A stretch of DNA of 46,591 nucleotides from Cyanobacteria bacterium SIG27 (GTDB taxonomy: Bacteria > Cyanobacteriota > Vampirovibrionia > Gastranaerophilales > Gastranaerophilaceae), in assembly GCA_015152565.1 (NCBI GenBank), contig SUTT01000013.1, positions 1 through 46,591 of the forward strand. Direction: 5' to 3'. The notes beneath the pieces are model-generated. The model ran no database searches. It was given only the letters and a program-made list of their open reading frames with translations, and had not been told where the DNA came from. The position numbers and the translations under genes are program-made. This document shows positions 7,899 through 46,591 of this stretch, piece by piece (positions within the stretch are counted from its first letter, which is position 1; every line of letters starts with the position of its first letter).

Positions 7899-8043
7899 GG
7901 CGTTCGCTCGACTATCGTCGGCTCCTTGCCTTTCGGGTACGGTATCCGCTCTTGCCGCCTGCTCATCGCAGCCGTCTGCGAGCTTCACACACCTTTGCCC
8001 TCAAGGCGTTCGCTCGACTATCGTCGGCTCCTTGCCTTTCGGG
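7899..8043 (-). repeat. GC-rich 106-bp-period repeat, 1.4 copies
   Basis: The word GGCGTTCGCTCGACTATCGT occurs at 7899 and again at 8005, a period of 106 bp. The same unit, in the opposite orientation, is tandemly arrayed at 10941-11210. Here the repeat starts at the base directly after the rpsO stop codon when read on the minus strand (CCCGAAAGGCAAGG...). It is far more GC-rich than the genes around it. I see no convincing coding frame in it. Confidence 0.9.
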
Positions 8044-8313
8044 TTAGCCTCTAATACCTAGTTCTTTAATTAAAGCACGGTATTTTTCTAAGTCAGCATT
8101 TTTTAAGTATGTTAACATACCTTTTCTTCTACCAACCATAACTAAAAGACCACGTTTTGCTTGGAAATCTTTTTTGTTAGATTTTAAGTGTTCTGTTAAT
8201 TCAGAGATTTTTTGAGATAACATAGCGATTTGAACTTCGATGTTACCTGAATCTTTTTCAGATTTACCAAATTTTTTGATAATTTCTTGTTTGTTTTTCA
8301 AGTTAATTGACAT
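8044..8313 (-). CDS. rpsO: 30S ribosomal protein S15
   Basis: Primary 16S rRNA-binding protein of the small-subunit platform, 89 aa, exactly the family's length. Diagnostic segments are SGNIEVQIAMLSQKISELTEHL, trimmed here to VQIAMLSQKISELTEHL, HLKSNKKDFQAKRGLL, VGRRKGMLTYL and YRALIKELGIRG at the end. The ribosome-binding site is AAAGGAAA, about 6 nt upstream of the ATG. It is transcribed alone and divergently from the flagellar operon. Its stop codon abuts a GC-rich repeat instead of a standard terminator, which is unusual for a highly expressed gene. Confidence 0.97.
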   Translation of the reverse strand: MSINLKNKQEIIKKFGKSEKDSGNIEVQIAMLSQKISELTEHLKSNKKDFQAKRGLLVMVGRRKGMLTYLKNADLEKYRALIKELGIRG

Positions 8314-10887: not shown

Positions 10888-11319
10888 CCGAGCAAAGCGA
10901 AGCGTAGTGCGATGCACTAGCTGAGCAAGGCGAGGTGCTAGGTGTGTGAAGCTCGCAGACGGCTGCGATGAGCAGGCGGCAAGAGCGGATACCGTACCCG
11001 AAAGGCAAGGAGCCGACGATAGTCGAGCGAACGCCTTGAGGGCAAAGGTGTGTGAAGCTCGCAGACGGCTGCGACGAGCAGGCGGCAAGAGCGGATACCG
11101 TACCCGAAAGGCAAGGAGCCGACGATAGTCGAGCGAACGCCTTGAGGGCAAAGGTGTGTGAAGCTCGCAGACGGCTGCGACGAGCAGGCGGCAAGAGCGG
11201 ATACCGTACCAAGGCGACGTAGGAGCGCAAGGGCAAAGCCCGAGCACCACAGGAGCAACAAAGAGCAAAGCGAAGCGTAGTGCGATACCCACAGGCGGAA
11301 AAGATAAGAAAGTAAAACC
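10888..11319 (+). repeat. GC-rich repeat array inside the flagellar operon (106-bp unit)
   Basis: This fills the 439-bp gap between flgG and flgA. The unit starting GGTGTGTGAAGCTCGCAGAC begins at 10941, 11047 and 11153, a strict 106-bp period, with two full copies and a third truncated near 11210; copies differ by a single C/T that I noticed. GAGCAAAGCGAAGCGTAGTG occurs at both ends (10890 and 11263), and AACCGAGCAAA occurs directly at 10886-10896 and 11316-11326. Each unit can form a GCTCGCAG...CTGC...GAGC hairpin. The period is not a multiple of three, and the overlapping frames here are artefacts of the repeat. Confidence 0.92.
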
Positions 11320-34276: not shown

Positions 34277-34333
34277 AATTACTTAATAATCGTAAATTGA
34301 CAATTTAATAATTAAGTCTACAACAATTATAAG

Positions 34334-34440
34334 GATGTTCCGAAAACGGTGAAAGCGACGAGCTTTCGACGTTTGAGAAACTGGACTATGGCGATGTGGA
34401 AATCTTAGATTTCCTCAGGAGCTATAAAAAAAGTTTATAG
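34334..34440 (+). ncRNA. Candidate structured RNA between tRNA-Thr and tRNA-Tyr
   Basis: A run of five hairpins: CCG-AAAA-CGG (34340-34349), GAAAGC-GACGA-GCTTTC (34351-34367), GTTT-GAG-AAAC (34371-34381), GGAAATC-TTA-GATTTCC (34398-34414) and CTATAAA-AAAAG-TTTATAG (34422-34440). It is clearly richer in G and C than ordinary spacers here. No ORF fits it. It lies inside the tRNA-tuf operon and ends 4 nt before tRNA-Tyr, so tRNA processing would release it. I do not recognise it as 4.5S, 6S, tmRNA or RNase P RNA. It might also be an untranslated repeat. Confidence 0.45.
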
Positions 34441-34444
34441 ATAT

Positions 34445-34527
34445 GGGTAGATGGCCGAGTGGCTAAAGGCGACAGACTGTAAATCTGTTCCCGCGAGGGT
34501 ACGGTGGTTCGAATCCACCTCTGCCCA
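34445..34527 (+). tRNA. tRNA-Tyr (anticodon GUA)
   Basis: An 83-nt class II tRNA: acceptor GGGTAGA/TCTGCCC, anticodon stem CAGA/TCTG with loop CTGTAAA (anticodon GTA), a long variable arm TCCCGCGAGGGTAC, and T-arm GGTGG-TTCGAAT-CCACC. CCA is not encoded. Thr and Tyr tRNAs before tuf match the tufB operon layout known in many bacteria. Confidence 0.96.
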
Positions 34528-34530
34528 TAT

Positions 34531-34569
34531 CTTTTAAAATTTTGCCCTAGTTCTTTGAACTTGGCCAAA
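34531..34569 (+). terminator. Long hairpin after tRNA-Tyr
   Basis: Perfect 14-bp stem CTTTTAAAATTTTG / CAAAATTTTAAAAG with an 11-nt top that itself pairs (GTTC/GAAC). It has no T-run after it, so it may be a processing or attenuation hairpin between the tRNAs and tuf and not a full terminator. Confidence 0.55.
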
Positions 34570-34715
34570 ATTTTAAAAGCACTTAGTGTGCGAAGTGCGT
34601 ATGCGGTTGCGATGAGCAAGCGCAAAGCACGAGACCTTACATGACCGCCGTTGCGACTAAAGCGGTAGCGCAAGGAGCGTAGCAATCTTTGATTGCACAG
34701 GCGGAAATAGGTGAT
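34570..34715 (+). repeat. GC-rich mosaic repeat in the tuf leader
   Basis: This part of the 244-bp tRNA-Tyr/tuf spacer is rich in short inverted repeats (CACTT/AAGTG near 34570, GCAATC-TTT-GATTGC near 34682) and words such as AAGGAGCGTAGC and CACAGGCGGAAA. CACAGGCGGAAA also occurs at the right end of the array near 11290, and AGCGTAG-type words are shared too. It looks like a diverged member of the same intergenic repeat class. It lies in the transcribed leader of tuf. Confidence 0.5.
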
Positions 34716-46407: not shown

Positions 46408-46591
46408 GCTCAATATCCTTATGCCCTCGTCTTCGTTCGCTAAACCAAGTCTGGCTAAGCTCACTTGACTCAGGTAGTCCAATTTCGCACAAGCCCGCCA
46501 CTTCATCAGTGCCGTGCAGGTGCTCAATATTCTTATGCCCTCGTCTTCGTTCGCTAAGCCAAGTCTGGCTAAGCTCACTTGACTCGGGTAG
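46408..46591. repeat. 70-bp direct repeat, two copies with 114-bp period, at right edge
   Basis: Copies are 46408-46477 and 46522-46591, with three mismatches that I counted; both contain CCCTCGTCTTCGTTCGCTAA and AGTCTGGCTAAGCTCACTTG. The second copy ends exactly at the window edge, so the array may continue. On the minus strand both copies lie in one open frame that enters from beyond the edge and ends near 46372, repeating SLARLGLANEDEGIRILS. Two of the three differences are synonymous in that frame. It may be an intergenic repeat family or the 3' end of a gene with peptide repeats. Confidence 0.75.

What the first reader, a model, noticed from the sequence alone, without database searches (positions are those of the whole stretch)
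34334..34440. Five-hairpin RNA candidate embedded between tRNA genes
A 107-nt stretch in the tRNA-tuf operon folds into five successive short hairpins with small loops, is richer in G and C than normal spacers here, and has no ORF. It lies between two processed tRNAs and would be freed by tRNA maturation enzymes. It does not match the common RNAs I know.
Basis: partly seen in the sequence, partly recalled or inferred. Interest (0 to 1): 0.52.

Follow-up and report, generated by a model that had tools for sequence, protein, structure and literature searches.

The report
Dispersed folded repeats at gene ends
The folded stretch between two tRNA genes is not a lone RNA gene but one copy of an apparently uncatalogued family of small folded repeats, scattered through the genomes of one group of gut bacteria, that tend to settle right after genes and for which no moving machinery was found.

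Summary
The stretch is real and folds far better than shuffles (z = -4.5), but as two stacked hairpin domains, not five hairpins. It is one copy of a dispersed repeat family of Candidatus Gastranaerophilales: 7 model matches in this window, at least 60 in this genome, present in all 28 genomes tested of its genus and patchily in other genera. The closest relative and 16 other congeners lack the copy at this spacer. The fold is under selection: 105 cells with compensatory changes against 24 in shuffles. Copies lie mostly in the sense direction just after stop codons, tRNA or tmRNA genes or terminators, repeat head to tail, have a fixed 3' end (CAGGAGC) and a variable 5' end, and many are flanked by duplications of host sequence (flgG, groEL and tRNA ends, about 11 to 67 bp). 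No IS200/IS605 or TnpB gene explains them, reverse transcriptases are not universal, and Rfam does not know them. Best reading: a non-autonomous, REP-like mobile repeat with an unusually elaborate RNA-type fold; the mover is unknown. The idea of a tRNA-operon RNA gene is not supported. An RNA-mediated, SINE-like mode of insertion is the boldest reading left open.

The parts
34331..34422 (+). Element copy E1 (the finding): H2 domain 34331-34389 and H3 domain about 34391-34422, ending in CAGGAGC
   Evidence: covariance model R1 match 34315-34422, 64.1 bits, E 1.1e-12 (part of this copy was among the 44 training rows); independent blastn matches in G026 at E 7.5e-19 and in 19 further congeners at E <= 1.2e-6
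34530..34704 (+). Second copy E2 after tRNA-Tyr: H1 hairpin about 34530-34581, H2, and a variant H3 ending in CACAGGCGG
   Evidence: R1 match 34567-34704, 38.2 bits; absent from the same spacer in most congeners, different copies there in G012 and G007
10888..11257 (+). Tandem array of three copies directly after the flgG-like stop codon, before the flgA-like gene
   Evidence: R1 matches 10924-11013, 11030-11119, 11136-11256; spacer without element in 20 of 24 congeners; genes named by Pfam
7899..8044 (-). Further copy, 99% identical over 146 bp to part of the array at 10996-11141
   Evidence: R1 match 7921-8010, blastn self match
46473..46550 (-). Further copy near the contig end
   Evidence: R1 match, 40.3 bits
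34204..34277 (+). tRNA-Thr(GGT) upstream of E1
   Evidence: ARAGORN
34444..34528 (+). tRNA-Tyr(GTA) between E1 and E2
   Evidence: ARAGORN

Best explanation
E1 is one copy of a non-autonomous, probably mobile, structured intergenic repeat of Gastranaerophilales. A unit has up to three domains: an H1 hairpin (present or absent), an H2 domain with a closing helix, an inner helix and a stem with a GNNGA-type loop, and an H3 hairpin whose feet are conserved (GCGACGT ... CAGGAGC) while its stem sequence varies freely. Shown: dispersal, absence at the same spacer in relatives, covarying fold, sense placement at gene 3' ends, head-to-tail tandem copies, fixed 3' end with variable 5' end, and duplication of adjoining host sequence at many copies. 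Inferred: that these features reflect insertion by an enzyme acting in trans that recognises the fold (as RNA, or as single-stranded DNA), and that copies are tolerated, and perhaps retained, because they land in 3' untranslated or spacer RNA, where they may act like REP sequences on mRNA stability or translation ends. The enzyme is not identified.
For: Dispersal: pattern CGACGTN{12,42}CAGGAG has 30 matches in the own genome against 1 for the reversed control; R1 finds 60 in the own genome and matches in 28 of 28 genus genomes. Absence in relatives: Thr-Tyr spacer is 166 nt here and 32-84 nt in 17 of 17 congeners; after flgG, 20 of 24 congeners have no element and 4 have different ones. Fold: 93.7% of cells paired, 105 cells changed on both sides against 24.0 +/- 4.3 shuffled, 0 of 500 shuffles as high, and slid structures far lower. 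Placement: 34 sense against 7 antisense in tandem spacers, 23 convergent against 5 divergent. Tandems: 49 of 51 neighbouring copies head to tail. Target duplication: AAATAGTATAA of flgG (L185), ATGGGAATGATGTAR of groEL followed by the sequence that follows groEL in the own genome (L114 and L006), 67 bp with a tRNA-Leu 5' end (L156) and 24-58 bp exact repeats in L145, L146, L149, L158, L160; 20 of 39 isolated copies exceed the 95th percentile of 274 control positions.
Against: For E1 itself no clear target duplication was found (best direct repeat at chance level; only TATAA/ATAA by eye). 19 of 39 isolated copies show none either, and none exceeds the 99th percentile of controls, because some control positions themselves held long repeats. 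Some duplications contain part of the element's own H1, so tandem duplication by recombination could account for part of them. No mobilising gene was found, and no insertion has been seen happening. Repeated presence at the same gene ends (flgG, groEL, tmRNA) in several species could also be read as conserved function.
Confidence: 0.7

Rival explanations
1. The copies are host-maintained cis-acting 3'-end RNA elements: they fold in the transcript just after the stop codon and protect mRNA, stop read-through or couple translation; mobility is past or incidental.
For: Sense bias and position right after stop codons, tRNAs and tmRNA; covarying fold; G.U pairs 101 against A.C 17 in the sense strand; in L203 and L206 the terminal AGGAG sits a few bases before the next start codon (read by eye).
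Against: 20 of 24 congeners do without one after flgG and 17 of 17 without E1; many genera have a single copy or none; 72 of the 101 G.U cells come from two pairs, and shuffled sequences also fold better on the sense strand in 393 of 440 cases.
Confidence: 0.15
2. A SINE-like RNA element: the transcript is reverse transcribed at a nick and inserted, giving a precise 3' end, variable 5' ends and target duplications of variable length.
For: Fixed CAGGAGC end and variable 5' end; duplications of about 11 to 67 bp; sense placement in transcribed regions; RNA-type covariation.
Against: RVT_1 is found in only 14 of 39 relatives, and copy-rich congeners such as G003, G007, G018 and G021 lack it; the RTs read here stand next to Avd-like genes (label recalled) or are fused to SLFN_AlbA_2, not an obvious partner.
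Confidence: 0.12
3. A discrete non-coding RNA of the tRNA-tuf operon, cut out by RNase P and RNase Z.
For: Position between two tRNAs and stable fold.
Against: Same spacer without it in 17 of 17 congeners; dozens of copies elsewhere, most not between tRNAs.
Confidence: 0.03

Closest known systems
REP sequences, REPINs and BIMEs (GTAG- and CGTC-tagged palindromes; PMC3733652, PMC3116915, PMC12306157)
   Same: High-copy, intergenic, hairpin-forming, mostly between co-directional or convergent genes and close to the upstream gene's 3' end (PMC3733652 section 15 read); CGTC REPs likewise have no dedicated transposase (abstract read).
   Different: REPs are 20-40 bp single palindromes, often in inverted dimers; here the unit is about 90-180 nt, asymmetric, multi-domain, head to tail, sense-oriented, with freely covarying stems and host-sequence duplications. 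Y1 transposase (RAYT class) is missing in 21 of 22 genus genomes.
HEARO / IscB omega RNA and TnpB omega RNA
   Same: Stand-alone structured RNA repeats of a mobile element (recalled; the paper search returned nothing).
   Different: No Rfam match of this kind up to E 1 in 11 copy-bearing loci; TnpB over cut-off in 0 of 39 genomes.
IS110/IS1111 seekRNA (PMC11187229, passages read)
   Same: Structured RNA of 70-100 nt in a mobile element that targets specific sites, including REPs.
   Different: That RNA lies inside an IS with its transposase gene; here copies carry no gene. The IS110 transposase was not searched for.

Membership tests
REP / REPIN | 20-40 bp palindrome with GTAG or CGTC tag | tested here: not met
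   Unit of about 90-180 nt with several covarying helices. H3 has GACG in its 5' foot, the complement of CGTC, but not as an unpaired tag of a short palindrome.
REP / REPIN | RAYT (Y1 transposase) in the genome | tested here: not met
   PF01797 in 1 of 22 genus genomes (G005) and not in the own genome
REP / REPIN | Location between co-directional or convergent genes, near the upstream 3' end | tested here: met
   34 sense tandem, 23 convergent, 7 antisense tandem, 5 divergent of 100 places, 30 undetermined, 1 inside an ORF
REP / REPIN | Dimers in inverted orientation | tested here: not met
   49 of 51 neighbouring pairs in the same orientation
HEARO / IscB omega RNA | Match to the RNA family model | tested here: not met
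   No such match among hits with E up to 1 in 11 copy-bearing loci
HEARO / IscB omega RNA | IscB (RRXRR domain) in the genome | tested here: inconclusive
   0 of 39 genomes, but the control genomes did not ring either
TnpB omega RNA of IS200/IS605 | TnpB gene in genomes with many copies | tested here: not met
   PF07282 over cut-off in 0 of 39
Reverse-transcriptase-borne retroelement | RT present where copies are many | tested here: inconclusive
   RVT_1 in 14 of 39 relatives, including the own genome, missing in several copy-rich ones; draft genomes
Discrete tRNA-operon ncRNA | Conserved at the locus in relatives | tested here: not met
   Absent in 17 of 17 congeners with all features readable
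Discrete tRNA-operon ncRNA | Separate RNA of about 110 nt in the cell | not testable with these tools
   No transcript data

The most novel reading that the evidence does not exclude
A bacterial SINE analogue: a gene-less structured RNA that spreads through transcripts, is copied into DNA by a borrowed enzyme at gene 3' ends and tRNA 5' ends in the sense direction, and leaves target duplications of variable length, a mode that I do not know for small bacterial repeats.
Probability: 0.12. Interest if true: 0.88.

Novelty: new variant of a known kind. Interest (0 to 1): 0.58.

Why it matters
It gives an uncultured gut lineage a repeat family of tens of copies per genome, with an RNA-type fold kept by compensatory changes and a marked preference for gene ends. 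Small dispersed bacterial repeats are often tied to a Y1 transposase; this one is not, and its long, variable host-sequence duplications make the question of how such repeats move directly testable.

Tried and rejected
Rejected: known RNA family; phage, plasmid or viral origin of the core (no match, although some single copies lie between prophage-type genes); IS200/IS605 and TnpB. Three of 21 genome contigs pattern hits, in Oxalobacteraceae, Solirubrobacterales and Chloroflexi records, were dropped as chance because R1 does not match them. An idea that the H1 3' arm is a guide complementary to the target (suggested by the groEL site) was dropped because it does not hold at the flgG site. RNAalifold on the raw alignment gave only 10 pairs, so a structure read by eye from the same alignment was counted instead; this favours the structure on the percentage paired, less so on double changes.

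Literature: searches listed no paper on such repeats in Gastranaerophilales or Melainabacteria; only listings were seen for these. The library holds open-licence papers only.

The single-copy genera were first taken as a hint of a master gene at one conserved place; 20 fetched loci showed several different contexts instead.

Full report
What is there. Window 34334-34440 lies between tRNA-Thr(GGT) and tRNA-Tyr upstream of tuf. It folds at -33.4 kcal/mol, z -4.5, 0 of 200 shuffles as good, as two stacked hairpin domains and not five separate hairpins. G+C is 41% against 17-28% in six element-free spacers nearby. No Rfam family matches the window at gathering scores except the three tRNAs, and 11 copy-bearing loci give, up to E 1, only tRNAs and three weak hits far below their gathering scores.

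It is a dispersed repeat. blastn of 34325-34443 finds five further places at E below 1e-5 in the own genome and a best hit of E 1.2e-6 or lower in 20 of 27 congeners; 7 of 27 gave only E 0.015 or weaker, and the best outside the genus was 1.6e-4. The pattern CGACGTN{12,42}CAGGAG matches 30 times in the own genome against 1 for the reversed control; one of the 30 (L048, apparently in a coding region) looks unrelated. A pattern scan of named genomes gave 21 stretches, 18 of them in Candidatus Gastranaerophilales or unnamed uncultured bacteria; the other three are not matched by the covariance model and are taken as chance.

The fold is conserved by compensation. From 44 copies (A1; the window copy is a 74-nt part) I counted a 19-pair structure: 93.7% of 825 cells paired, 12 pairs and 105 cells with changes on both sides against 7.3 and 24.0 in shuffles, 0 of 500 shuffles as high, and slid versions at 29-46% paired. 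RNAalifold on its own found 10 pairs, 7 of them with double changes. The stems vary almost freely while loops and feet stay: GCGACGT and CAGGAGC around H3, a GNNGA-type loop in H2. In about 9 to 11 copies the U-A and G.U pairs of the closing helix are replaced together by what would be a tandem G.A pair (read by eye).

Distribution. Model R1 matches 33 of 58 relatives at E <= 0.01: 28 of 28 in the genus (1 to 60 matches, 60 in the own genome), 1 of 7 in other genera of the family, 4 of 22 in other families of the order, 0 of 1 outside. In a wider draw 84 of 241 genomes of the order match at E <= 1e-4, in 26 of 50 genera; of the 67 matching genomes outside the genus 41 have exactly one match (only 15 candidates per genome were scored, so high counts are lower bounds). 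In 292 genomes of the phylum 45 match, all in this order. No match in phages, plasmids (one copy used as query) or viral contigs (pattern).

Absence at the same spacer in relatives. In 18 genomes where tRNA-Thr, tRNA-Thr, tRNA-Tyr and tuf could all be placed, the Thr-Tyr spacer is 166 nt here and 32-84 nt in the 17 others; the closest, G012, reads straight through. Downstream of tRNA-Tyr, G000 and G012 carry different copies, G007 two tandem copies, and the others none or only a hairpin. After the flgG-like gene (window 10887) 20 of 24 congeners have no element, while G012, G006, G005 and G007, like the own genome, carry elements of differing type, all in sense, four of the five starting right at the stop codon.

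Host-sequence duplication. In L185 the last bases of flgG with its stop codon, AAATAGTATAA, recur after CAGGAGC. In L114 the groEL end ATGGGAATGATGTAR recurs between copies and at the far side, where it continues into the sequence that follows groEL in the own genome (L006). tRNA 5' ends recur in L003, L013, L015, L019, L023 and L026, and in L156 67 bp including a tRNA-Leu 5' end. Among 68 copies 44 have a direct repeat clearly above shuffles (tandem copies included); among 39 isolated copies 20 exceed the 95th percentile of 274 shifted control positions, and none exceeds the 99th, which is inflated by other long repeats. E1 itself shows no clear duplication. In several cases the repeat contains part of the element's own H1, so recombination between tandem copies may contribute.

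Placement. Of 100 places (81 clusters and 19 single-copy loci), 34 are sense and 7 antisense in tandem spacers (binomial p 2.5e-5), 23 convergent and 5 divergent (p 9e-4), 1 inside an ORF, 30 undetermined. Genes were called by a simple ORF rule, and places in related genomes are not fully independent. The model start lies within 65 nt of the upstream gene's 3' end in 39 of the 57 sense or convergent cases, many at 25-43 nt, consistent with H1 starting at the gene end. Neighbouring copies are head to tail in 49 of 51 pairs. Single copies in other genera sit after groEL, tmRNA, a PBP gene, P2 GpU-like and Mu Gp36-like prophage genes and between a DUF2924 gene and a serine recombinase, which points to carriage by other mobile elements.

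Who moves it. Y1 transposase: 1 of 22 genus genomes. TnpB: 0 of 39 over cut-off. RVT_1: 14 of 39, including the own genome, but missing in copy-rich G003, G007, G018 and G021. RRXRR: 0 of 39 with a silent control, hence inconclusive. So no known mover is supported.

RNA or DNA. G.U outnumber A.C cells 101 to 17 on the sense strand, but 72 of the 101 come from two pairs (29 to 17 without them). The sense strand folds better in 44 of 44, but shuffles do so in 393 of 440. Sense placement after genes supports RNA; single-stranded DNA is not excluded.

Comparison. REP sequences share the copy number, hairpin nature and location (PMC3733652, abstract and sections 6 and 15 read, passages of others; PMC12306157 and PMC3116915, passages read), but are 20-40 bp palindromes, often inverted dimers, and the GTAG kind is tied to RAYTs. 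This family works like REPs in where it sits; it fails their size, tag, dimer and RAYT criteria, so I call it a new variant of a known kind and not a REP.

Verdict. Confidence 0.7 for a non-autonomous mobile repeat; how it moves is open.

Noticed in passing
L070 936-1217, L084, L086 (Thr1-Thr2 spacers of G005, G024, G007): A second small repeat family (ACTCTGCCGAG ... CGAGAGGGAAGCACTCCCGAG) that also sits behind partial copies of the tRNA-Thr 5' end.
   Followed up: no
L128 23-1621 (own genome contig C10): A 533-aa protein with RVT_1 fused to a Schlafen AlbA_2 domain.
   Followed up: partly
L135, L137: Reverse transcriptases next to an Avd-like small protein (label recalled), suggesting diversity-generating retroelements in congeners, each with an element copy within about 1 kb.
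   Followed up: no
L203 4086-4517, L206 4048-4281, L222 2290-4032: The upstream reading frame runs on into the element, so the element supplies new C-terminal residues and the stop codon (DUF2924, P2 GpU-like and PBP genes).
   Followed up: partly
window 34640-34704; L046; L172: An H3 variant ending in CACAGGCGG instead of CAGGAGC, probably a sister subfamily.
   Followed up: no
L064, L157, L158, L161, L212, L213, L218: Copies at or near the tmRNA 3' end (by ARAGORN in L064, L157, L158, L161 and L212; by likeness in L213 and L218) in several genera, some followed by a partial copy of that end.
   Followed up: partly
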